Part shown: positions 5,462 to 58,219 of the stretch, in pieces | How positions within the stretch are numbered: the first letter of the stretch is position 1 | Layout: every line of letters begins with the position of its first letter | NCBI RefSeq assembly: GCF_000002425.4 | Contig: NC_037260.1 | Span: 14,925,372 to 14,989,371, forward strand | Reading direction: 5' to 3' | From: Physcomitrium patens | Lineage: Eukaryota; Streptophyta; Bryopsida; Funariales; Funariaceae | Length of the DNA stretch: 64,000 bases | The notes under the pieces: generated by a model | What the model saw: the letters and a program-made list of their open reading frames with translations, nothing else | Told to the model about the DNA's origin: nothing | The model's database searches: none | Program-made: the position numbers and the translations under genes

Positions 5462-6388
5462 CTAAGACGAGGTTTCAGGCTCGACAGCCTCTTCACTGGC
5501 CTCCTCGATAGCGCTATCCTCTTCTTCTCCCTCACCATCTCCAACAATAATCTCAAACGAACCGGACGCGCCATACATTTGCTCTAAGTACTCCACCGAC
5601 GACTTGGTAAGAATCAATTTGTCAGCTCTCAAGACATCATAGAGGTTCAGATTTCGGGGTGTAATGAGCTTGACGGTACTTACATTTCTGCTGGACAATA
5701 CCAGAGATTCCGAAGGGTTCACAGAAAACAGCAACGAATTTTCTCCTTGCTTGACGCCCCATCTCTTGAGTGCAGAAATGAATTCCTTCGTCTTAGGCGT
5801 GGTGAATTTGTCCTCAAAATCCTCCACCACCACAGTGTTAACACTTGCAGACTGCAGGGCAGTGCTAATGGCTAACCTTTTCTCCTTCTTGTTAATCTTG
5901 ATGGACCAATCCTTGGGCTTAGGGCCGAATACAACACCTCCACCAGGGCGAAGTGGCGTCCTAATCGATCCCTGGCGAGCCCTTCCGGTGCCTTTTTGCT
6001 TGTAAGGCTTCCTTCCTCCTCCTCGCACCTCACTCCTCGTCAAAGTCGACGCGGTTCCCCGCCTCCTGTTCTGCATCTCACAAATCACACCCCTGTGTAC
6101 AACAGCCTTAGCAGTCTCGGGCCGGGCCGTCCGCAGGTCCATCTCCACCTCCCCGGCTGCCTCGCCCTCGAACGTCAACATGGGAAGCGTCACTGCCATA
6201 GCCACGACCTTCCCGGGCTTGGCAGCTGATTGGCATTGCAATGCCTTCTTCACGCTCGCCCGCTTCAAAGACGGCACCACCTTCAAGCCACTGAAGGACG
6301 CATTGGTCGTGCTGTGCGACAGAGGCGAAGCGAGGGAGGAAGACGAAGAGGTGAGAGGCAACGCCACGCCCGCGGTAGTCGACGCCAT
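5462..6388 (-). CDS. RPL4: Plastid 50S ribosomal protein L4, nuclear-encoded precursor
   Basis: This is a single exon of 308 residues. Bacterial-type L4 binds 23S rRNA early in large-subunit assembly, and its long loop lines the peptide exit tunnel. The first 60 or so residues are rich in Ser, Thr, Ala and Val with almost no acid, as in a chloroplast transit peptide. The L4 core follows: RRRGTAST, EVRGGGRKPYKQKGTGRARQ, and RPGGGVVFGPKP at about residues 108-158. The end is a very acidic tail of about 25 residues (Glu/Asp/Ser), longer than in bacterial L4. The start MASTTAGVALPL is chosen because it begins a normal transit peptide. An in-frame ATG 105 bases upstream (6493) would add 35 residues that look like leader. 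Bacterial L4 is about 200 residues and flowering-plant plastid L4 about 280. The gene is divergent from the fibrillin-like gene. Confidence 0.94.
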   Translation of the reverse strand: MASTTAGVALPLTSSSSSLASPLSHSTTNASFSGLKVVPSLKRASVKKALQCQSAAKPGKVVAMAVTLPMLTFEGEAAGEVEMDLRTARPETAKAVVHRGVICEMQNRRRGTASTLTRSEVRGGGRKPYKQKGTGRARQGSIRTPLRPGGGVVFGPKPKDWSIKINKKEKRLAISTALQSASVNTVVVEDFEDKFTTPKTKEFISALKRWGVKQGENSLLFSVNPSESLVLSSRNVSTVKLITPRNLNLYDVLRADKLILTKSSVEYLEQMYGASGSFEIIVGDGEGEEEDSAIEEASEEAVEPETSS

Positions 6389-6578
6389 CGCCGCAGAAGC
6401 AAAATTGATGCACCAAATTGGAACTGCGAGCTGCTCGAACTGGCTCCCTGGAGAGAAAGAGCAAGCGTCTCTCAGGATAATAGAACGCCGCAATTCTGAG
6501 GCCCCGGATAAGGCACAACCTCAGTGGTTGCACCGAAGCTGGGTCCCAGCCTCGGCTTACACCGAGATAAAACCATGA

Positions 6579-26911: not shown

Positions 26912-27828
26912 ATAAGACATAAGTGTATTAGAAGTTTTGGATTACTTTCTTTTAAATTGATATTTTTCTTAGTATATTCTTTGTTCTTAAGTCCTTTTTT
27001 CTATTTGTCTTCAGTGATATTTGATATCTTCTCTTTTTTAAGTGTTATTATGATAGAGCTTGTTAAAATAAAAAATAAAATGATAAAAATATAAGAGAAA
27101 TTAAGAGAGTTAAAGCTTACAATGCATTAATTTACTTTACTAGTAAAAAAATAAATATAGATAAGCAGAGAGCAAAGACATAGAAATGATTGGAACTACT
27201 TTAATATCTATATTAAATCATGTCTCTTTTCTTATAGTGGAACATCCTTCTAGTATTAAAGAATCAATGGTTGTATTGTTTGAAAAGTTTGATGGTACAA
27301 GATCCAAGTTTTGAAGATTTATCAATCAAGTACAACTTGTGATTGAACTTCAATTCTAAAGTCATCCAATTCTATGATTGTAAGTTACATTTATTGATAT
27401 ATTCCTTTCAAATTCAGCATTATCATGGTTTTTATTTTTTCTTGAATGACGAGATCTAATATTGGATAATTTAGAGACTTTTTTGGTGAAGTTTCAATCC
27501 ATGTGTGAAAAATATGATGTAATGTATGTTGCAACCAACAAGATCTATATTTTGTAATAAATCAATGAATTAGTAGCATTATATGCTTTACAATTTCAAT
27601 AACTTGCAACTAATATCTTGTGGAATGATGTTGCATTTATTAGCCAATTTTTCTATGGATTACAATATGAAGTAAAAAAATTGATGCTTAACTTAGCTAA
27701 TCCTCAAATATTGAGTCAAGCAATTGATTTTGTTGTGAAATATGACAATTGACTTTGTAAATTTCTTTCTGAGAGTTGTACAAGTGCACTTCAACATTAT
27801 TATAATTTAATGGCAATACAAACATATA

Positions 27829-28297: not shown

Positions 28298-28443
28298 TAA
28301 CGTTGGATGAAAAGATAAAATTTTACCATTCATTACGAGAATGAGGGAAAAGTCCTTAAAAATTATTAAATAATATTAATTAATAATAATAGGACAAGTG
28401 AGAGCTCATATAATAGATTAGATGCTAAAAGAATGTGATTAGA
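27829..28443. other. Unassigned repeat inserted in gag of element B, left part
   Basis: The gag-like sequence of B stops at about 27828 and is followed by AT-rich DNA with an AAATA microsatellite (about 27935-27963) and a 30-base T tract (28263-28292). It continues on the far side of the chromovirus at 34654. I recognise no coding sequence. Confidence 0.45.
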
Positions 28444-28606
28444 TGTCATGGACACAGAATATAGACTTGATATCTACCAAGAAGTTCAAGAAGAACTGGA
28501 AAGAACTAGATTAATCAGATGAATACAAGAACAACACCAGAGAGGTGAGCTAGAGCTCCAAGAGATGTGTTGTCGAGACTGAAGAACTCTTCAGCTTCGA
28601 TCCCAA

Positions 28607-28612
28607 TATATA
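28607..28612 (-). promoter_or_regulatory. LTR TATA box (3' LTR)
   Basis: TATATA in the context AGTATATATTGGG on the minus strand. It lies directly downstream of the heat-shock-element array in element orientation, about 40 bases from the nearest perfect array member. The same motif is at 34348-34353 in the 5' LTR. Confidence 0.6.
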
Positions 28613-28622
28613 CTCCTATTTA

Positions 28623-28845
28623 GGAAGCTTCTCAAGAAACTTCTACCAACTAGGAAGCTTCTAGAAGGTTCCAGAGACTTGCTTCAAGAAGGTTCTAGAA
28701 ACTTATCTCTAGAAGGTTCTAAGGACTATGTCCCTAACATCTTCTACCAACTAAAAAGCTTCTAGAAGGTTCCAGAGACTTGCTTCTAGAAGGTTCTAGA
28801 AGCTTGTCTCTAGAAGGTTCTAGAAACTTGTCTCTAGAAGGTTCT
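28623..28845 (-). promoter_or_regulatory. Array of heat-shock elements in the 3' LTR
   Basis: The heat shock factor site is alternating GAA and TTC units spaced by two bases. This stretch has perfect four-unit sites at 28654-28671, 28683-28700 and 28784-28801. It has perfect three-unit sites at 28760-28772 and 28813-28825, plus several two-unit sites. They all lie upstream of the TATA box in the element's reading direction. The pattern is seen directly; heat control is inference. Confidence 0.7.
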
Positions 28846-28864
28846 AAGGACTATGTCCCTAACA

Positions 28865-28879
28865 TCACCCCCTCCTTTA
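28865..28879 (-). other. Polypurine tract of the chromovirus
   Basis: On the minus strand TAAAGGAGGGGGTGA directly abuts the 3' LTR. This is the position and composition expected of the plus-strand primer. Confidence 0.85.
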
Positions 28880-29399
28880 GCTTCGAGGTCTCTGAGAAGC
28901 AATGTTGTTGTCAATCAGTACCAACGCAAGAAAATGAAGATCTGTCGCATAACGTCTGCTATGAACTCCAACTGTTGTTCACGAGGTAAGTGGTTCATCG
29001 GCCCTTGAGGCCAACGGTAGTGGCCCACTCCTTCAACTTCTGACCAAGCATGAACTTCCGTGTCTTCATTGTGAAATTGTCCTGCAAATATGCCTTCTGG
29101 TTGACCATCGTAAGCAGGCTCAGACTCAAATACAATCACCAGTGATCGGTTACTTGGTATCCTCCGTCGTCGTCATGGTGTAGGTAGTTCTTCATCTTGG
29201 GGTCGCCTTCGTGAACTAGTTGGTTGAGATAATCTGACTGGCATAGTATCTATCTCTAGGCTATCCATATCAGAAGACCAAACTATGGCTACTGAAAAAA
29301 TTCTATTTTATCTTGGAGAAAATAACTACATCAACTACGAATTTTGGTGGTGCTCTCCCCCTTTCTTATATTCTTGGGTGAGCAAGCTTCAGAAAGAAG
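28880..29399 (-). other. Chromovirus spacer between chromodomain and polypurine tract
   Basis: About 520 bases lie between the end of the chromodomain region and the polypurine tract. A 74-codon open frame lies on the minus strand at 28915-29139, with no family I recognise. The block does not resemble the 3' block shared by copies A to D. Confidence 0.45.
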
Positions 29400-32300
29400 C
29401 TATTGTCGAATCGGCTTAGGTTTATGAGGATGTTGTTGATGAAATTCCTGTACCTTTTGCGGCGCATTGGTGACATTTTCAGCTGGCTCCCACGTTCGCT
29501 CATTAATGTCGTAGCCGCACCAATGAACAAGATACTCCAACTTGCCCCACCTTCGTCGAGAATCCAACACCTTTTCAACCTCGTATTCCTCGTGGTTCTC
29601 GATCTCAATACTAAATAGCAGACATTGCACTCTTCTAGGAAAAGACGACTCTCGATAAGGCTCCAACAGAGAAACATGAAAGACTGGATGTACCTTCATA
29701 GAAGCTGGTAATTCCAGACGGTACACCACTGGATTGATTTACTTTTGGATGATAAATGGTCCCAATCTTCGATAGTCCAACTTATCACATAGTGGCTTGG
29801 TCTTGATATTTTGTCGAAGAAGCCATGCTTTATCTCCAATTTTGAAAGTAGGTGCTTGATTCCGAAATCTATCTACAGATGCCTTGTAGGATTCTTGAGC
29901 GGATTGTAATTGAAGCTTCAACGTATTTTGAAGCTCTGATAGTTGTTTCGCAAATCCTTCAGCTGTTGGATTGTTATTTGTTGATAGACTCAATAAATCA
30001 AGCTTCGGATGATACCCATAGTTGGAAAAGAATGGTGTGTATTGAGTCGACGCATGAAGGGTGTTGTTATATGCAAACTCGGCTAGTGATAGATATGTGG
30101 TCCTATCGTCTTGTTGATAGTTGATGCTGCATCGTAAGTATTATTCCAAGACTTGGTTCACCCATTCCGTTTGACCGTCAATTTGAGGATGAAAAGCCGA
30201 AGAAAGCTTGATATCCACCTTCAGTATCTCAAAGAGAGATCTCCAAAACTTTGATACAAATTGGGTTCCTCGATCTGATACGATATCATCTAATAGTCCA
30301 TGATATCGATACACATTATCGAGAAAGAGCCTTGCTGTGACTTCACTAGATGATGTCTTCTTGCAAGGGACAAAGTGCGCCATTTTTGTAAGCCGATCTA
30401 CCACGACAAAGATGATGTCAAATGAGTTCGATGATGGCAGGTCCGTGATGAAGTCCATGGAAATTGAAGACCATGGTCGACGTGGAATTGGCAATGGCTG
30501 TAGGAGTCCATAAGGGCGATGCCGAGGATTCTTGGATCTTGAACAGATGTCGCAGGAGAGGACAAAATCTTTCACATCCTTCCACATTTGGGGCCACCAA
30601 AAATCTCGAGAAATAAGCTCCAAGGACTTGTTGAATCCAAAATGTCCCGCAGTTGGAAAATCGTGGCGAGATTGAAGAACTCGGAGTCATGCTGGTCCCT
30701 TTGGGATATATAACCGCTCTTCAAAGTATAAAAGATCTCCCTCCACCTTGAACTTGTTGTCATTGGCATGCTCCTTAATATCAATGGCTACTGAATCTTC
30801 AATGGTTACGGCACGTACCTGTTTTAGGAAGTCAGCATCAATTGGAAAAATAGTAGCGCAAAGCTGAAATTACTCTAGCTTCAATAATGTCGTACATTGT
30901 TGATCAAGCACTATTTCTCCAGCCTTTGGTACACGATACGATCTCCTCGATAAGGCATCAGATAGTCCTTGCTACTTTCCAGGTCGATAAGTGATAATAA
31001 AATCGAACCTAGATAGCAACATACTCCATCGAGCTTGATGTCCATTTAGAACTCGAGCCGACATGAAATACTTCAAATTCTTGTGATCTGTGTATACGGT
31101 CACTGGATGTGCAGCTCCTTCAAAAAAGTGATGCCATTCTTGGAGAGAATCCACTATAGTAAGAAGTTCCTTATCGTAGATTTCATAATTGATTTCAGTG
31201 GCAGAGAACTTTCGAGAATAGAATGCAACAAGATGGAGCTTCTTGTCTTCTCCCATTTGTGAAAGTACAACTTCCAAAGCAAAATCTGAAGCATCAGTTT
31301 CTAAATAAAAGGCCTTTGTAAAGTCTGGATGTACCAAGATTGGAGTCATAGTAAATGCGGTCTTCAGGTTTTGAAACGCCTTCTCTGCTAGAGGTCCCCA
31401 TTCCAGCTTATCCTTGCATGTCAATCGAGTGAGAGGAGCAGCAACTTGAGAGTAATTCTTGATAAAGATCCGATAGAAGTTAGCAAAACCAAGAAAGCAT
31501 TGTACGTCTCTAACCGTCTTCGGAACCTCCCAGGATACGATTGCTTCCACCTTCTTGGGGTCCATCTTCAAGCCTTCCGTAGTCGCAACGAACCCCAGAA
31601 ATTCCATTTGTATTTGATGAAATAAACACTTCTCCAACTTGGCATATAGTCTTCGCTCGCATAGTTTCTCCAATACCAAACAAACGTATTTTTCATGCTC
31701 TTCCTCATTTTTGGAGAATATCAAAATATCATCCAAATAGATGACAACAAAATCGTAAAGGTACTCTCGAAAAATGTCATTCATCATATGTTGAAAGATC
31801 GCTGGAGCATTGGTAAGACCAAAGGGCATGACATTATATTCAAAATAGCCATACCTTGTACGGAACGCTGTCTTCCACTCATCTCCTTCCTTGATTCGTA
31901 CGAGGTTGTAAGCTCCCCTTAGATCAATTTTTGTAAAGATCCTTACACGTCGAAGTTGTTCTAAGAGACTAGAAATCAAGGGTAACGGGTAACGATTCTT
32001 TTTTGTTACCTTGTTGAAGCCTCGATAGTCCACGCACATCCACAACAAGCCATCTTTCTTTTTCACAAATAAGATGGGTGCTCCAGCTGACGATTTTGAA
32101 TGACGGATGAAGTTCTTGGCTAGATTCTCGTCAATGTACTTCCGCAATTCCGCCAACTCCATCTGCGATAGATTGTAGATTGGGCCAAAAGGTGGTTGTG
32201 CTCCTTCCTGTAAGTCTATGGCGCAATCATATGGTTTGTGTTCCGGTAGCATGTCGGCATTTTTCTTTTGAAACACATCTTTAAAATCCTTATATTGCTC

Positions 32301-32873
32301 CGGTATACTTGCTGTCGAGATCTTCTCCCCGGTAGTTGGAGCCGCATAAATGACAAACGGTATGCCTCTCTTAGACAATCTTATAAACGCTCTTGCTCCA
32401 ATAAATAAGGATTTTTCTATTCGAGGTTTTCTACTAGGCTTACTCTTGGGTGGTTTTGTGGGAAAGGTCATCTTTCGCAACTTCCAATCTATGGATGGGT
32501 TATGCTTTTCTAACCAAGAAAGACCAAGAATAACAGGATTTGATGGGGTTCTAATAATATTGAAAATAATATGACTACTATGGTCCTTAAACGTCACTTC
32601 TATAGGTTCTGATTCATAGGTGACACTACTAGACAATAAAGGTCGTCCATCTATGACCTCAACGTGAACAGGTTGGGATTTTTGTACTAAAGGGATCTTA
32701 TGACGCTTTACAAATTCTTCGTCTAAGAAACAAGCAGATGCTCCTGAATCTAATAATACTAAGGTTCTTAGTTTCTGAGGGCCAATAAGCAAAGGGATTG
32801 TAAAACAAAGGGCAGGTTGAGCGGAAAGAAAGGAATCTGGTTGTTGTTGCGATATTTCACTATCCAGCCGCAT
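29400..32873 (-). pseudogene. Chromovirus pol region (fossil)
   Basis: Domains in reading order on the minus strand: an aspartic protease with LLDSGASACFL; reverse transcriptase with the YLDDILIFS active-site motif; RNase H with VTVYTDHKNLKYFM; integrase with the CDICSRSK zinc-finger end and SISMDFITDLP catalytic-core entry; and a C-terminal chromodomain with [16 protein letters not shown]. The aromatic and acidic residues typical of chromodomains are present, a type known to bind modified histone H3 and steer integration. The region is broken. Confidence 0.9.
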
Positions 32874-32878
32874 GTTTC

Positions 32879-33904
32879 CTATTGTGACTGGGCATCCTCG
32901 TTTTCCTGAATAAACGTGCCCCTAGTCTTGATAATACGTCGATTTTGCTTCTTGGGGCAGTTTTCAACTTTGTGGCCTTCTTCACCGCAATACAAGCATA
33001 GACCTTCCTCCATACGCTGCTTTTTTTCTTCTAGAGTAAGAGATTTGACACGTACCGCATCAATTTGTATGTCTTCTATCTCTGAATGTGAATTCACGCT
33101 GCTTGCCGACATAGTTGGGGTGTGGCAAACCATATGTTGTCTTGAACGTTGGTCTTGGTGACGTTGGAATAGGCAGTTATCGCACTTCACAGCTTGGCTA
33201 ATAGCTTCGTTGAGCGTTTGCGGATCAGGAAGAGTTAACAGCAAATCCTTCACATCGTCACTTAAACACCAATAGAATTGACTCATCAACGCTTCTTCGT
33301 CCCAATTGATGTCGCATGCTAATTGCCTGAAGTCCGATGCATAGACTGATGTAGATCGCACCCCTTGTCGTAGTGACCAGATCTTTGTTGTAGCCCATCG
33401 AATCTTGTCGTGTTCACCAAATGCTTTCGTAAATGCCTCCAAAAAGGTTTCAAAGTTGTTTAGTATGGACGATCGTTTCTCAAACAAAGGAGCAAACTAT
33501 GATAGAGCTTGTCCTGTAAGTAAGGTTCTAACAAGCCCAACACGTGACTCCTCCGTTGGATAGCGTTCGGGCTGTAAAACTGTTATTAACCTGATTTGGT
33601 TGACGAATCCTCGAAACTTGGAACGTGTACCATCAAACTTGTCTGGAAGGCTAACTCGGGGTTCCTTATGTTGTAGAACCAGCGGTGCTTGTCGAACCTG
33701 AGGTAAAGTTGCTTCTTCAAGTGTAGAAGTTTGAGGCTGGTGCAACCTAGATTGTGCCATCCGAGATGCTCCATCATTATGAAGCCTTGCGATGACTCCT
33801 TCAATTTCTGCAGTTCTTTGCGATAACGTAGCGAAGGCATTCATGATAGCATCTAACTTGGACTCTGAACTTTTCGTCATACTAATGTCTTGGCCCCCGA
33901 CCAT
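32879..33904 (-). pseudogene. Chromovirus gag region (fossil)
   Basis: This encodes a Gypsy-type capsid segment (PRVSLPDKFDGTRSKF, FLEAFTKAFGEHDK) and a CCHC zinc knuckle, CLYCGEEGHKVENC, near its end. It lies a few bases before the pol region. It is broken. Confidence 0.88.
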
Positions 33905-34145
33905 TCTAAGAGAAGGACAGAAATGACTCTACAAGAAGACAATATTGGTTTAGAGGAAGGTACTCCGCAACCTCTAAAATGCCTTAAGAGCTTCAAGAAA
34001 AGGGGTAATTTACTCTCTCTAAGAAGAATAAGACTCCAATATTGTAACAAAAGAAGTATCAGTTTAGAGGAGGGTAATCTGCAACCTCTAAAGTGCTAGT
34101 ACACTTCTAAACAGAGGAGTAATCCACACTCTAACAAAAAAGAAA

Positions 34146-34159
34146 CTAGCTCTGATATC
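34146..34159 (-). other. Primer-binding-site-like sequence of the chromovirus
   Basis: On the minus strand GATATCAGAGCTAG resembles the TGGTATCAGAGC complement of initiator methionine tRNA. It starts about 25 bases inside the 5' LTR end, further than usual. Confidence 0.55.
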
Positions 34160-34184
34160 TGAAGTGAGTACAGTCCCGACAAAC

Positions 34185-34653
34185 TGTCACGGACACAGAA
34201 TATAGACTTGATATCTACCAAGAAGTTCAAGAAGAATTGAGAAGAACTAGATTAATCAGATGAATACAAGAACAACACCAGAGAGGTGAGCTAGAGCTCC
34301 AAGAGATGTGTTGTCGAGACTGAAGAACTCTTCAGCCTCGATCCCAATATATACTCCTATTTAGGAAGCTTCTCAAGAAAATTCTACCAAGTAAGAAGCT
34401 TCTAGAAGGTTCGAGAGACTTGCTTCTAGAAGGTTCTAGAAACTTATCTCTAGAAGGTTCTAAGGACTATATCCCTAACATCTTCTATCAACTAAGAAGC
34501 TTCTAGAAGGTTTCAGAGACTTGCTTCTAGAAGGTTCTAGAAGCTTGTCTCTAGAAGGTTCCAGAGACTTGGTTCTAGGAGGTTCTAGAAGCTTGTCTCC
34601 AGAAGGTTCTAGAAACTTGGCTCTAGAAGGTTCTAAAGACTATGTCCCTAACA
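34185..34653 (-). repeat. 5' LTR of the chromovirus
   Basis: It is 469 bases and carries the heat-shock-element array at about 34365-34634 and a TATA box at 34348-34353. In element orientation the order is array, TATA, transcribed part, matching a normal U3-R-U5 layout. Confidence 0.9.
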
Positions 34654-36599
34654 TTGGAAGATGATTGGAGAAGAAAAAAATAATATACCTTGAATATGTG
34701 AAGTTAGAAGCAACTACCCTTTGATACTAAAAAATTCACCAAAACTTCTTTGAGATTTCCATGCATGTGAATTTTAGTGTAATCTAAGCTAATTATAGCA
34801 TACTCCTACTTTTCTAAATCTTGTGGCAATCCAATCTGAAATGCTTGAGATATGATTTTTTTCAAGTAGAGCCACTTAGACTACCTTGGTAGTAGATCCT
34901 TTTTTACTTAAAATTCACTAAGAGTTGATTAGTGATTTAAAGTTAATAACTCTAATTTTTCCTAAAACTAAACTTAACAAAATATATTTTTCAAAAAAAT
35001 ATTTGATGAAAAGACATTAGTAGGTATTAAGCTACGTTTTTTCAAAGTGAATTTTTCTAAACTACCAATGCAATAGATCTATCCTTACTTTAAAAACTAT
35101 CAATAATTTGTTATAATTTAAAAATTAGTGAGTCAAATTTTATAATAAATTAAACTTTAAGTTATATTTACAATAGCAAATCACATTAAAGCTGAGTGAG
35201 AGGTCACTAAGTTAAATTTTTTAGAAATTGACGCTATTGTATTACTTGTTGTCTTGCTCAAGAATGCACCAAGTACTTAGCTGTGGAAGGTGAGATTGTG
35301 TTTCACAAGTAGCCAAAAAATCCTAATAGATTTCATCCATACGAGAAGAATATAATCTGAATTTTAATTCAAAAGTACTAAAAATAATCTTTTTAGTAGT
35401 CTTAACCATACATAAATCCCAATTACCTTGTTACTTTCATATTTAAGCAATTTCGATTTTTCTTGTAAGCCCGAATTCTAATCAGTGAGCTTTAACAAGT
35501 TGTAACATCTAATCCGACCGTCTACTTGATGTGGAATTTTTCATGCAATTGTCAATGTAAGTCTTCTATATGCTCAAGAATTTTTAGCCCAATCCAACTT
35601 ACAAACTGTGAAAAAACCTCCAAAAATTGCACTAATGTCACTCGGCCGCCAACTTGAAAAGTGAAGCAAAAATCTCAGCAGTGATTTCTCTCTTTCCAAC
35701 TATTAACTTTTTTTCAAAATTGGTATATAGCTTGATCTTCAAGTCCTTCAATACCATGCCAATTTTCACCTTAATCCAAGTGATACATCTTTAGATATCA
35801 TAGAAATCCTATCTAACTTCAAACTGCCACCTTCCAAAACCCTCTTGTGCTAAAAACTAGATATCTTTAAACCACATTGTTAGATTATCACAAAATTTTG
35901 TATATACTTAGCATACTTAATAATCCAAATAATATCAAATTTTTAACTATATATATTATAACAATTGCACAAACTAGCCAAAATTTCTAGCCCTAATTAT
36001 ATTATATAAAATCCAAATCACTGATACAAACCCTGACTTCAAACAATAATTGATAAGTCCTAAAAAATCCTTGAAAAAAAATCCTTATGCTTCTAAAAAG
36101 AACTTCAAGCTAGCTCTCAAATCCTATCCTTCGATCTTTGAATGAATCTGTAACTTGCCCTCGGCAATCATTTAGTTACTAGAGGTCTGATTTTGACCCT
36201 TGGGTATCAATCTAACTTATTTTAAGGATTTTTTAGTCCAATTCTACCCTTAACTTGACCCTAGTATCAACCATACCAACCATTTATCTCTTCTCTCTTG
36301 ATTTTATCAATTTATGGTCTTTCTAAGGTAGTAGAAGAATCTTTACTATCTAGAAGGTAAAATTACTAACTAACCTTCAACCTACTAACTATGAAGATAA
36401 GAAAATAACCTAAGAGGCTTTTATAAAAGCCATGTTTTGATACCTCAAATTGTACTAAAATTCTAATTTTAGAAATAAAAGAGAATTTAAACCAAATAAA
36501 AAAAAAATAGACCTTTTAAACTTATTATTTTTAGAATTTTTAACAATCACTCAATCTAATAATTAAAAATATCTACCTAAAAGACATAACATATTTTAA
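34654..36599 (-). repeat. Unassigned repeat with an F-like LTR remnant (about 35283-36591)
   Basis: This continues the insertion begun at 27829. From about 35283 to 36591 the reverse strand has the F-family LTR word order: CTAATCCGACCGTCTA (F: TTAATCCGACTGTCTAAAC), TATCACAAAATTTTGTATA, then CTAGCCAAAATTTCTAG. I therefore suspect an old minus-strand LTR element into which the chromovirus inserted. The bounds are uncertain, and 34654-35280 holds no recognisable gene. Confidence 0.4.
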
Positions 36600-37279
36600 G
36601 TAAAGAAAATTAAACCTATTTATGTAGAAGTCATGGATGGTCATCTGTTGTCTTTTTGAGATGTTTCTCATGAAATCTTTCCTATAGAAGTAACAACTAA
36701 TGGTGTTAGTAGCTTTGTAATATTTAATATCATTAGATTTTCTTCTAATTTGGTTATTTTAGGTTTATCATGGTAATAAAAATATGATCCTAAAATAAAT
36801 TGAATTTCTTATAATCTTGACTTTTTTAAAAACATAACTAAGAGTGTAGTTAATAAAAAAAAATGGTCATAAGTCTAGTACAACTAAACTTGTATTTGTA
36901 GGTGCTAGAGCTTTCTTATATACTACAAAAGAAGTATTACCTTATGTCATTTATTCTGTACTTGTTTCTAATGGTGGAAAGACTTCAAGTTGCATTTTAA
37001 GCTAATATTAAGATTTTAAAGATGTATTTGAAAAGAAGAATGTAGATATTCTTTCAAAATATTATTCTCATGATTGTTCAATTGACCTTCAAAAAAAAGC
37101 TCAACCACCATTTGGACCAATCTATAATTTATTATAAATTGAGTTAACTAATCTCAAGGAATATATTAAAGAGAATTTGGCCAAGAACTTCATATGCCAT
37201 TTCAAATCTCCAATAAGAGCTTTAATTTTATTTGTGAAGAAAAAAAAATGGATCATTATGGATGTGTGTTGATTATCGA

Positions 37280-54020: not shown

Positions 54021-57000
54021 ATTAAAGTAAGTAAGTATTATCTTAAGTAAGTTGTTAATGGTCAAAGGGCAACAAAAAGGTGAAGGAAAGTAATTAAAGT
54101 GGTGGCTAGGGTTTAGGTGGTGGCTAGGTTAAGAAAGAAATTAGGATTTAGTTGGATGAAGTAGAAATGGATGTAATATGAAGAGGATGGAAGTTATCTC
54201 GTTGGTTAGCAACCACCACTCATAAGTAAAGGATATTGGAAGTGAGAGATATCTCATTCTACACTCTTCTTTTATCTAACCTTGTTGATTTTTATTTACT
54301 TGTGTCTTGCTCATTGTATTTATTCAATAGATTATGGGCCTTCACACACTTAATTGTGCTTCTCAAGTAAGTTGAAGTTATTTGCTAATTTTTACTTTTA
54401 TGTGGAATAGATCTTATGATGTTTGCTGATGTTAGGATTTGTATGACCTAATCTTAAGTTTTGACTTATGGAGGTTCTGATTTGAACCTTATAGATCCCT
54501 AATATCTATTTGAAGGTTTTTAATTCCTAGGATTGAGTGATTAGGACCTTATACAAAGACCTTAATAGTGACTTTGGTGTTGTAGAAGTTTTAGTGAGAA
54601 AGTGAGTTTTATGAATTAAAAAATTTGGTGATGAGGTTGATTGCAGCCCACATACTTGTTAGAAGCTTTGAAAGTTGAATTGAGAGTATTTGGAATGAAA
54701 AAACACTCATTTGTTCAGAAGAGGCATTCTGAGATTTTGCTAATGTAAAATTATTTTGGTGATTTTAAGCACATAGAGACTCTTTTTTTTGATATTTTTT
54801 AATAGACCTATTTTTAGACATGACTTTTAGTGAAGGTGAAGATTTGAGAGTGATTAAAAAGTTTAAAGGTGATAATTTCTATGATTTGAAGGTAAAAATA
54901 GAACTTTTGTTGGTATCTTTGGACCTTTGGGATATTGTAGATGAAAGTGAAGAGCCTCCAAGTATGCATGCTAATGCTAAGGAAAGGAAGGACTTTATAA
55001 GATATAAAAAAAAGGCTTTGGCATGATTGCCATCAATTTGGATGAAGCCAACTTTTTTCACATCATCTCTTGCAAAGGACTAGCAAAAGTATGGAAGATC
55101 CTTTGTAACATTTATGAGAGCAAGAACTTGTCTAATATCATCTTCAAAAGGAGGAAATTCTTCACTTACAAGATAGAAGAAGGTGATGACCTCATGGCTC
55201 ATATCAATAAGGTAAATACACTTGCTAATCAACTTGCAATTATTGACAAGCCTCTTGAAGAGAGTGATATTATCATGATCTTGCTTATAAGCCTTCTCGA
55301 CTCTTACAACTACCTCATTGTGACATTAGAATCCATAAAACGAAAAGAACTCACAATGGATTATGTGACGGCAAGACTTGCTTATGAGGTGACCAAGAGG
55401 AAAGAAAAAGAGCCTCAAAGTGAGGATTTGGCTCTCTTTTCAAGACAAGGTAAGGGGAGTTATTTTAATCAATGTGGCAATACAAGAACTTACTTTATTT
55501 ATAGAAAACTAAATCATTTTTTTAGAAATTGCTACAAGGCTAAAAAAAGAAATAGAAAAAATACAAACAATGCTAGTGATGAATATGGAGGCGATGATTA
55601 TACATTCATAGTAAGTTAAGGTACTTCCATGGCTATTATGTCCAAGTAGATTGTTGATTTAGGTGCTACCAAGCACATGACTCCATACAAGTATTTATTT
55701 GATACTTATGAAGAAATTTCAGCAACAAATATACTCATGGAAGACAATGGCATAGTAAAAGCTATTAAAATAGGCTCTATTATGGTAGAGATTGTTGTCA
55801 AAGGCCAAACTAAGAAGATCAGATTGAAGGATGTCTTATATGTGCCAAAGATGAAGAAAAACCTCCTCTCGATGAATAAACTTATTTCACATGGTTATAC
55901 AGTATAATTTAATAAGAATGGGTGTTTTGTGAAGATATTGAAATGAGATGATGTTGTGTTTTTAGAGCACAAGAGTGCAAAGGGCTTTAGAGATGGCAAC
56001 TTCTACTTTATCAAGTGTAAGAAGGTGAATGAAGTTGAAGTGGCGGTATTTGTTGAATTTTCTCAAAATCAAGAGAAGTTTGGCATTTACCTTTGATGCC
56101 TTGGTCATTTGAATGTTAAGAGCATGAAAAAGCTCCAATCCATAGTAAGTGACTTAGATCTTATAAGCCATAATACTATGACACTTGCTTGTGAAGGTTG
56201 TATTCAAGGCAAACAACAAAGGGCTATATTTTTAAGTGGAGTTGCAACATATACAACCAAATTATTGGAGATAGTCCATTCTAATGTTTATGGACCTATG
56301 AGGATGTCATCAATAAGAGGTGCAAGTTACTTTATCACATTCATTGATGATTTTTCAAGGAAGGTGTGGATTTTCATCCTCGAAGCAAAGAGTGAATGTT
56401 TCACAAGATTTAAAGAGTTTAAGGCACTTGTAGAGAAGCAATGTAAGTACAAAATCAAGATATTGCATATGCATAATGGAGGCGAGTATATGTCAAAGCA
56501 ATTCAATGATTTTTTGAAGATGCATGGTATTGCAAGACAAACCTCCACTTTTTATACTCCACAATAAAATGGAATTGCTGAAAGAGCAAATCACACCATT
56601 GTGGAGATAACAAGGATTATATTACATGTATAAAACTTTGGATTTGAGTATTAAGCAGAAGCCATAGTAACAGTAGTGTATACAAAGAATAGGTGGCCTA
56701 GAAGTGCACTTATATCAAAAACTTCTGAAGAAGCTTGGAGTGGGAAGAAACCTTGTATTTCATATATGAGGACTTTTGGATGCATAGTATATGCAAAGAC
56801 ACCAGATTGTATGAAATCAAAATTTGATGCAAAAGATACAAAATGTATGTTTGTTGGATATTCTGAAGGTACAAAGGCTTGTAGGCTCATGTGTTTGGAA
56901 ACCAAAAAGATCATCAAAAGTCGTGATGTTGAATTTTTAGAGTACAAGAATGCTTGTACGTACTTGGAGATGTGTCGAAGTGAGAGTAATAGTGTATTTG

Positions 57001-58219
57001 TCGACACATCTTCAAATTTAGCAAAGAACGAAGAAAATGAAGACAATAATGGTTGTAAAGATGGAAATGAAGATGAAGAAGAAAAGAAGGTAAAAAACAA
57101 GGCCTTTAAAAATGCTAAGGCCAGCAATGAAGAGCAAAAAGATGTTGATGATGATGGTGATGAGGATTATCAACCTTTGAGTGAGAAAAGACTATCTACA
57201 AAAGAAAAGAAGGTTAGAATGTAACAAGTTGAGTCTTTTCTATATGAAAGGAGATATCTTTTGAGAGATAGAAAACAATGTGGCGAATGGTGGAAGAATC
57301 ACATCTTTCCTTAAGTAAGTGAAGAACATGCCAATATTACACTTCTTATTGATTCATTGAATTTGTATGATGCAGTGAAGTCCACAGATACTTTGAAGGG
57401 GGAAAAAGCCATGGAAGAAGAATATCAATCACTCATGGACAATGGAATATGGAAATTGACTCAACTTCTACTAAATTGAGCTTCAATTTATTGTAAGTGG
57501 GTGTTTAGAATAAAAAGGGATATAATGGGTAATGTTGTGAGATATAAGATAAGATTGATTGCCAAAAGCTACTCACAAGTTGTTGGTATTGATTTTAATG
57601 AAATATCTATTCCTGTGGCTAAATTCACCACCATTAGAACTATTGTGGCAATTGGGGCAGCAAAAGAATTAGAGATGCAAATGATAAAAGGTCAACAAGG
57701 AGATATGTATTCTTTATTGGAATGAGAGCTATTTCATGGAATTATAAGAGACAACCATCAATTGCAAGGTTAAGAATGAAGAGAGAATACATAGCAATAA
57801 GTCATGGTGCAATGGAGGGAATATAGCTAATACAAATTCTAGAAGATATTAGACTTGTGCAATTGGAAGCAACTCCAATGAAGTGTGACAATCAAGGATG
57901 CCTTATCTTTGCAAAGAATCCAAAGCATTACTCAAGAACTAAGTACATTGACATTCAACATCACTTCATAAGAGAAAAAATTGAAATGAGAGTGATTGAT
58001 ATGAAGTATTGTACAATGGAAGACATGCTTGCAGATTTCCTTACAAAAGTACTAGTAAAGAATAGGCATTAGAAGTTAACAAAGGTACTAGGATTAATAG
58101 CCTTTGACCAATAGCAAAGTGGGAGTGGGAAGTAGGAAGTATCTCATTCTACACTTCTTTTGTGTCTAATCTTGCTGATTTCTACTTACTTGTATCTTGC
58201 TTATTATTTTTATTCAAAA
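54021..58219 (+). mobile_element. Ty1/Copia LTR retrotransposon (fossil) inside element D
   Basis: It is flanked by the direct repeat CAAACT (54015-54020 and 58220-58225), and D's gag reads on across the empty site. The 5' LTR is about 54021-54327. A partial 3' LTR lies at about 58128-58219, and the two share ATCTCATTCTACAC and CTTACTTGTGTCTTGCT-like stretches. On the plus strand the order is gag with FKGDNFYDLKVKIELLL and a decayed zinc knuckle (54820-55620), protease near 55650, integrase with HLNVKSM, GPMRMSSIRGASYFITF and FRKVW-like motifs (about 56100-56640), an incomplete reverse transcriptase segment (about 57390-57730) and RNase H ending ADFLTK (about 57780-58075). Integrase before reverse transcriptase is the Copia order. 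It is broken, with several breaks. Confidence 0.88.

What the first reader, a model, noticed from the sequence alone, without database searches (positions are those of the whole stretch)
28623..34634. Arrays of perfect heat-shock elements in both LTRs of a chromovirus
Seen: both LTRs carry tandem AGAAGGTTCTAGAA-type units. The 3' LTR alone has three perfect four-unit and two perfect three-unit GAA/TTC sites with the exact two-base spacing of heat shock factor binding sites. In the element's orientation they sit just upstream of a TATA box (28607-28612; 34348-34353), where an enhancer should be. Known: the Copia element ONSEN of Arabidopsis is heat-activated through such sites in its LTR. Inference: a Gypsy chromovirus in what looks like a bryophyte has acquired a heat-responsive promoter by tandem amplification. 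The two LTRs also differ in the number of units, so the array is still changing.
Basis: partly seen in the sequence, partly recalled or inferred. Interest (0 to 1): 0.78.

Follow-up and report, generated by a model that had tools for sequence, protein, structure and literature searches.

The report
Heat-shock-site arrays in moss retrotransposon promoters
An abundant jumping-gene family in the model moss Physcomitrium patens carries rows of perfect heat-shock-factor binding sites just above its promoter in every copy sampled, although published expression data suggest that heat does not simply switch the family on.

Summary
Each LTR has five perfect heat-shock elements (HSEs), against two such runs in the other 63 kb. 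The element is a defective minus-strand Ty3/Gypsy chromovirus grouping with fungal and vertebrate elements. Its predicted RNA start, 31 nt below the TATA box, is also a self-primer matching the primer-binding site, which places the core promoter. The host is Physcomitrium patens. Genome-wide there are 11,443 perfect four-unit HSEs against 81 for the reversed pattern. Of 80 LTRs picked by their RNA-start motif alone, 80 have a perfect HSE above the TATA box (279 runs; 1.0 expected). Cores differ less than spacers between distant copies, but alignment artefacts may explain much of this, and tests on near copies are not significant. Heat activation is not shown: the abundant chromodomain Gypsy family of this moss, RLG1, is reported as repressed by heat shock (PMC7466625). 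Best reading: a family-wide, HSF-bound LTR promoter whose direction of response is open. New variant of a known kind.

The parts
34185..34653 (-). 5' LTR (469 bp), TG...CA ends
28444..28864 (-). 3' LTR (421 bp), 96.2% identical to the 5' LTR apart from one 48-bp block
34395..34614 (-). HSE array of the 5' LTR U3: three perfect four-unit and two three-unit sites; 24-bp units inside a longer repeat
28654..28825 (-). HSE array of the 3' LTR U3: three four-unit and two three-unit sites; 24-bp units inside a 101-bp repeat
34347..34353 (-). TATA box of the 5' LTR (LTR position 301)
28606..28612 (-). TATA box of the 3' LTR (LTR position 253)
34311..34322 (-). predicted RNA start and self-primer, LTR positions 332-343, 31 nt below the start of the TATA box
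34171..34182 (-). primer-binding site, 2 nt inside the 5' LTR, complementary to the self-primer (11 Watson-Crick pairs and 1 G-U)
28865..28878 (-). polypurine tract just before the 3' LTR
32879..33928 (-). gag region in two pieces of one frame parted by a stop (Retrotrans_gag by Pfam; zinc knuckle by eye)
30972..32921 (-). protease, reverse transcriptase and RNase H
29400..30686 (-). integrase, SH3 (Tf2-1-like) and chromodomain, in three pieces of one frame parted by stops (no Pfam hit in the middle piece)
34654..34658 (.). flank TCCAA (element orientation), possible target-site duplicate of 28439-28443 (TCTAA), 4 of 5 bases

Best explanation
The arrays are binding sites for heat shock factors (HSFs) in the U3 promoter of a very abundant, self-priming chromovirus family of P. 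patens (probably the Tcn1 clade, probably the family called RLG1). HSF trimers bind above the TATA box and modulate transcription that starts at the CAGTCTCGACAA motif, whose RNA then pairs with the primer-binding site to prime reverse transcription. Shown here: the sites, their place, their presence in every one of 80 LTRs sampled, and the self-priming match. Inferred: that HSFs bind and matter. Open: the direction of the response. Since the likely family is transcribed in unstressed protonema and falls under heat shock, I think the array more likely supports HSF-dependent basal or developmental (or non-heat stress) expression in most copies, with heat induction, if any, confined to some subfamilies.
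For: 80 of 80 LTRs chosen on the R motif alone have a perfect run of three or more units within 300 bp above the TATA box, 78 of 80 a run of four or more; 279 runs against 1.03 in shuffles; 0 runs in 10,960 bp of R-U5 of the same LTRs; GAA/TTC at 5-bp steps ranks first of 288 word-by-spacing combinations. Genome: 11,443 palindromic four-unit sites against 81 for the reversed pattern; AGAAGGTTCTAGAA 8,783 against 7. Core positions differ less than spacers, the more so with distance: core/spacer ratio 0.82, 0.65, 0.50, 0.16 and 0.14 in bands of falling U3 identity, against 0.96 for the two LTRs of one element; caveats under evidence against. Promoter geometry: TATA begins 31 nt above the R motif in 13 of 15 elements and 29 nt above in the other 2, and at 31 nt in 78 of the 80 LTRs. 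ONSEN shows that such LTR sites can bind an HSF and drive transcription (PMC3907296, passages).
Against: No binding or expression data were run. RLG1 is reported as heat-repressed. Among the 16 units of this copy, core and spacer do not differ significantly (inner core 2 of 96, inner spacer 7 of 96, P 0.17; all core 23 of 192, all spacer 10 of 128, P 0.26, the latter with more change in the core). Near inter-element pairs do not differ from the intra-element control (ratio 0.82, CI 0.61-1.19, 113 pairs, against 0.96, CI 0.57-1.70, 24 pairs; Fisher P 0.67). In distant pairs periodic arrays can align core to core without homology: in the 72-80% band spacers differ at 43% of sites, more than U3 outside the runs (24%), which suggests just that; those ratios overstate constraint, and the pairs are not independent.
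Confidence: 0.6

Rival explanations
1. One reading: an ONSEN-like heat-switched promoter; heat-activated HSFs induce the family's transcription and transposition.
For: High-affinity HSEs in the LTR correlate with heat response in Brassicaceae COPIA elements (PMC5059998, passages). A P. patens Gypsy family, RLG2, is induced by heat and ABA. CHG sites are scarcer in the U3 than in R-U5 (6.1 against 19.2 per 100 C; 80 LTRs), recalling ONSEN's CG- and CHG-free promoter, though CG sites are hardly scarcer (6.1 against 7.8).
Against: RLG1, the abundant chromodomain Gypsy of this genome, is reported as repressed by heat shock. At least 3,428 LTRs carry the exact R motif, more than the 1,058 LTRs of the 529 complete RLG2 elements in that paper (incomplete copies and solo LTRs not counted).
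Confidence: 0.25
2. The array is not a regulatory site: it is a repeat prone to expansion, kept for another reason such as RNA structure of the U3 in the 3' end of the transcript, or for none.
For: The U3 of the 5' LTR folds as RNA far better than shuffles (z -7.6); near-palindromic tandem units expand easily; no significant core/spacer difference inside this copy or between near copies.
Against: The exact 5-bp alternation of GAA/TTC recurs in 80 of 80 LTRs and outranks all other trimers and spacings tried, with 13 different word-and-spacer combinations; strong folding is expected of any tandem near-palindrome.
Confidence: 0.15

Closest known systems
ONSEN / ATCOPIA78 (Arabidopsis), PMC3907296 (passages)
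   Same: HSF sites in the LTR promoter of a retrotransposon; promoter poor in CHG sites
   Different: Ty1/copia; no tandem array mentioned in the passages seen; heat induction and HSFA2 binding demonstrated there, not here
Brassicaceae COPIA37, TERESTRA, ROMANIAT5 and ONSEN, PMC5059998 (passages)
   Same: 3P/4P HSEs in LTRs; ONSEN's four-unit site arose by duplication of a two-unit one
   Different: Copia, angiosperms; HSEs of most families species-specific
TCN3 and TCN12 of Cryptococcus, PMC12810828 (passages)
   Same: LTR elements (TCN3 a Ty3/Gypsy) with two and one putative HSEs in the LTR and transposition only or almost only at 37 C
   Different: fungal; no array described; HSF role there also a suggestion
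RLG1 and RLG2 of P. patens, PMC7466625 (sections 3 and 17, and passages)
   Same: same host; RLG1 is an abundant chromodomain Gypsy; RLG2 is heat-induced
   Different: the terms 'binding site' and 'cis-regulatory' do not occur in its main text and no HSE is mentioned in what I saw; sequence identity with this element untested
Tcn1 clade of moss and club-moss chromoviruses, PMC6317226 and PMC2864245 (passages)
   Same: moss host, chromodomain, Tf1/Sushi affinity; self-priming predicted for most members
   Different: no HSEs or heat response in the passages seen; for the Selaginella member SM-Tcn1 neither tRNA nor self-priming was found

Membership tests
Ty3/Gypsy chromovirus | RT and RNase H before integrase, chromodomain at the integrase C-terminus | tested here: met
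   RVT_1, RT_RNaseH, Integrase_H2C2, rve, SH3_Tf2-1, Chromo in this order on the minus strand
Tcn1 clade (plant branch of Tf1/Sushi) | groups with Tf1/Sushi elements apart from other plant chromoviruses | tested here: inconclusive
   29 rows (28 of 120 listed hits, chosen by me); grouped with a fungal (Absidia), a fish and frog rows at 100/99, away from Tanacetum (used as root) and Closterium; no named Tcn1, Tf1 or Sushi reference was in the tree
Tcn1 clade (plant branch of Tf1/Sushi) | self-priming in place of a tRNA primer site | tested here: met
   primer site complementary to the RNA start; 0 of 3000 shuffles at that place, 9 of 3000 over the whole LTR; 1,676 exact junctions in the genome, control 0. 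Absence of a tRNA site judged by eye only
Tcn1 clade (plant branch of Tf1/Sushi) | non-seed plant host and aromatic-cage chromodomain | tested here: inconclusive
   host met; cage residues judged by eye from recalled HP1 positions only
RLG1 of P. patens | sequence match to the published family | not testable with these tools
   no reference sequence held; chromodomain, host and copy number fit
ONSEN-type heat-activated LTR element | perfect HSEs in the LTR above the TATA box | tested here: met
ONSEN-type heat-activated LTR element | transcript rises under heat through HSF binding | not testable with these tools
   published family-level data point the other way for RLG1
ONSEN (ATCOPIA78) itself | Ty1/copia element | tested here: not met
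   Gypsy domain order and chromodomain

The most novel reading that the evidence does not exclude
One retrotransposon family has seeded the moss genome with more than half (by extrapolation) of its 11,443 perfect four-unit HSEs. HSFs drive it in unstressed protonema, and on heat shock HSFs are drawn to chaperone genes, so the family falls when HSF rises; in turn the LTRs act as a large HSF sink that buffers the host heat response.
Probability: 0.14. Interest if true: 0.85.

Novelty: new variant of a known kind. Interest (0 to 1): 0.62.

Why it matters
HSEs in LTRs are known from some Copia families and suggested for fungal elements. Here they are tandem arrays, in a self-priming chromovirus, in every one of 80 LTRs sampled, and so numerous that perfect four-unit sites are 141 times commoner than the reversed pattern in the genome of a model plant. 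Because the likely family is reported as heat-repressed, the case separates 'has HSEs' from 'is heat-induced' and can be tested with existing moss expression data.

Tried and rejected
Relatives by pol in viral contigs: 5 stretches matched a pattern, none confirmed. A 16-mer in viral contigs and a 19-letter unit pattern in prokaryote contigs: 6 and 3 loci, each with only one or two HSE runs, taken as chance. tRNA primer site: a tRNA-Met-like string (recalled) lies about 25 nt from the LTR end and was set aside in favour of the self-primer at 2 nt. Rfam (gathering threshold) and tRNA scans of the window were empty. Core/spacer test inside one copy: not significant; near inter-element pairs: not significant. 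Of 20 stretches fetched because they hold HSEs, 6 (L025, L029, L033, L035, L037, L038) were dropped for lack of one clean LTR pair. Of 100 listed R-motif places (of 3,428 counted), 80 were examined and 20 not fetched; all lie on contig 1. In one search, 1,527 of 3,131 pairs could be placed in an identity band; 1,592 had U3 that aligned poorly or under 72% (6 of these are in the lowest band). Papers by DOI 10.1111/tpj.13801 and 10.1038/s41477-023-01614-7 are not held. I found no report of HSEs in moss chromovirus LTRs in the ten paper searches; they cover open-licence papers only, and several listings were capped (20 of 1,005, 25 of 18,268, 30 of 50, 20 of 24, 15 of 21, 15 of 31).
Full report
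Observation. The two LTRs (28444-28864, 34185-34653) belong to one minus-strand element; the right LTR is its 5' LTR. Both carry three perfect four-unit and two perfect three-unit HSEs, against two three-unit runs in the other 63,110 bp. Shuffles of each LTR give 0.014 runs on average. The units are 24 bp long and lie inside a longer repeat (101 bp in the left LTR) that also repeats the LTR's own start. The LTRs differ by one 48-bp block and 16 substitutions in 421 aligned bases.

Anatomy. Gag, protease, RT, RNase H, integrase and a chromodomain were found by Pfam. Gag and integrase are parted by in-frame stops, so this copy is defective. The sequence 2 nt inside the 5' LTR pairs over 12 bases (one G-U) with LTR positions 332-343, which begin 31 nt below the start of the TATA box. 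No shuffle of 3000 reaches this at that place, 9 of 3000 do over the whole LTR, and of 221 consecutive internal 24-mers only the one at the LTR edge does. This is the self-priming arrangement predicted for most Tcn1-clade elements and described for Tf1/Sushi elements (PMC6317226, passages). It points to the RNA start and so places the HSE array in U3, right above the core promoter. A tree of RT-RNase H (29 rows chosen by me, rooted on the angiosperm) puts the element with fungal and vertebrate rows, apart from the angiosperm and an alga, at 100/99.

Host. The genome holding the window has 470.4 Mb in 101 contigs. The window's chloroplast L4 protein has its best named P. patens hit at 87%. That P. 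patens protein (LOC112277019) is encoded at 100% over 295 of 295 residues on contig 24 of the same assembly; contig 24 has 13,755,829 bases, close to the 13,750,750 listed for that protein's contig. So the hit is a paralogue and the host is P. patens.

Family-wide test. AGAAGGTTCTAGAA occurs 8,783 times against 7 for the reversed word. The palindromic four-unit HSE occurs 11,443 times against 81. The first 18 bases of R occur 3,428 times against 0, and the LTR-end plus primer-site junction 1,676 times against 0. I examined 80 of the 100 listed R-motif places, chosen without regard to U3. All 80 have a perfect HSE run of three or more within 300 bp above the TATA box, 72 have two or more runs, 78 have one of four or more units; 279 runs against 1.03 in 200 shuffled sets; none in 10,960 bp of R-U5. 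Among 32 trimer classes and nine spacings, GAA/TTC at 5 bp ranks first: 80 of 80 LTRs, the next combination 34 of 80. The 80 LTRs, all on contig 1, and the window LTR fall into two large U3 clusters (45, with the window, and 32) and four singletons. At 1.85 four-unit matches per LTR (148 in 80), the exact-R LTRs alone would account for roughly 6,300 of the 11,443 sites; this is an extrapolation.

Older branches. Twenty stretches fetched because they hold HSEs include one with pol 59% identical to the window's, with a four-unit HSE in both LTRs (L022). In 14 clean elements plus the window, the R motif is found in 15 of 15 with 0-2 mismatches; a TATA box begins 31 nt above it in 13 and 29 nt above in 2 (L022, L036); the primer site reads TTTGTCGAGACT exactly in 9, with changes in 4 (the window among them), and was not located in 2. 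LTR pair identities of the 14 run from 82% to 98%, so insertions have many ages. U3 counts against shuffles and the word scan give the same picture in these 15, but 14 of them were picked for their HSEs.

Constraint. [quoted passage not shown]). Between elements, the ratio drops from 0.82 to 0.65, 0.50, 0.16 and 0.14 as U3 identity falls (1,527 banded pairs of 3,131). This fits purifying selection on the cores in the replicating lineages. Against it: alignment of periodic arrays favours core-to-core matches, and in the 72-80% band spacers differ more (43%) than U3 outside the runs (24%), as such misalignment would give; pairs are not independent; the near-pair test is not significant, nor is the test on the units of this copy. 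I count constraint as likely, not shown.

What it does. That HSFs bind such sites is established knowledge and shown for ONSEN (passages). The step from binding to heat induction is not safe here. In P. patens RLG1, the abundant chromodomain Gypsy (5,092 complete elements), is expressed in unstressed protonema and repressed by heat shock and UV-B; RLG2 (529 elements) is induced by heat and ABA (sections 3 and 17). RLG3 is recently mobile but had no detected expression (passage). Copy number and chromodomain point to RLG1 for the family described here, but no reference sequence was available to prove it. So I hold that the arrays are HSF sites in use, and leave the sign of the heat response open.

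Novelty. HSEs in LTRs are known in Copia elements and suggested in Cryptococcus TCN3 and TCN12. [quoted passage not shown]

Change after checking. TATA spacing, the band counts and the spacer-against-outside result were corrected or added; for the last I lowered the main confidence from 0.62 to 0.60 and raised the non-regulatory rival from 0.12 to 0.15.

Noticed in passing
window 34171-34182 and 34311-34322; genome-wide: Self-priming arrangement: RNA start and primer-binding site complementary; 1,676 exact LTR-end/primer-site junctions in the genome.
   Followed up: yes
window 19500-60100: TE island of decayed relatives of the same gag and pol (27-83% protein identity in separate tblastn pieces); outside the element it holds no run of three or more HSE units.
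   Followed up: partly
window 27231-27797 and 36579-37263 (+): Gag and pol pieces of older plus-strand sequence on either side, so the element may be nested in an older one.
   Followed up: no
window 55008-57224 (+): Decayed Ty1/copia element (copia-type gag and SH3 domains).
   Followed up: no
80 U3 regions, L039-L118: CHG sites are scarce in U3 (6.1 per 100 C) against R-U5 (19.2); CG sites hardly so (6.1 against 7.8).
   Followed up: partly
window 5462-6520 (-) and G000 C24 near 6950030: Two paralogous genes for chloroplast ribosomal protein L4, about 86% identical.
   Followed up: yes
P0127, P0133, P0138, P0144: Frog proteins are among the closest named relatives of this moss pol (about 52-57% identity in RT-RNase H); a fungal one (Absidia, P0201) is at 62%.
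   Followed up: partly
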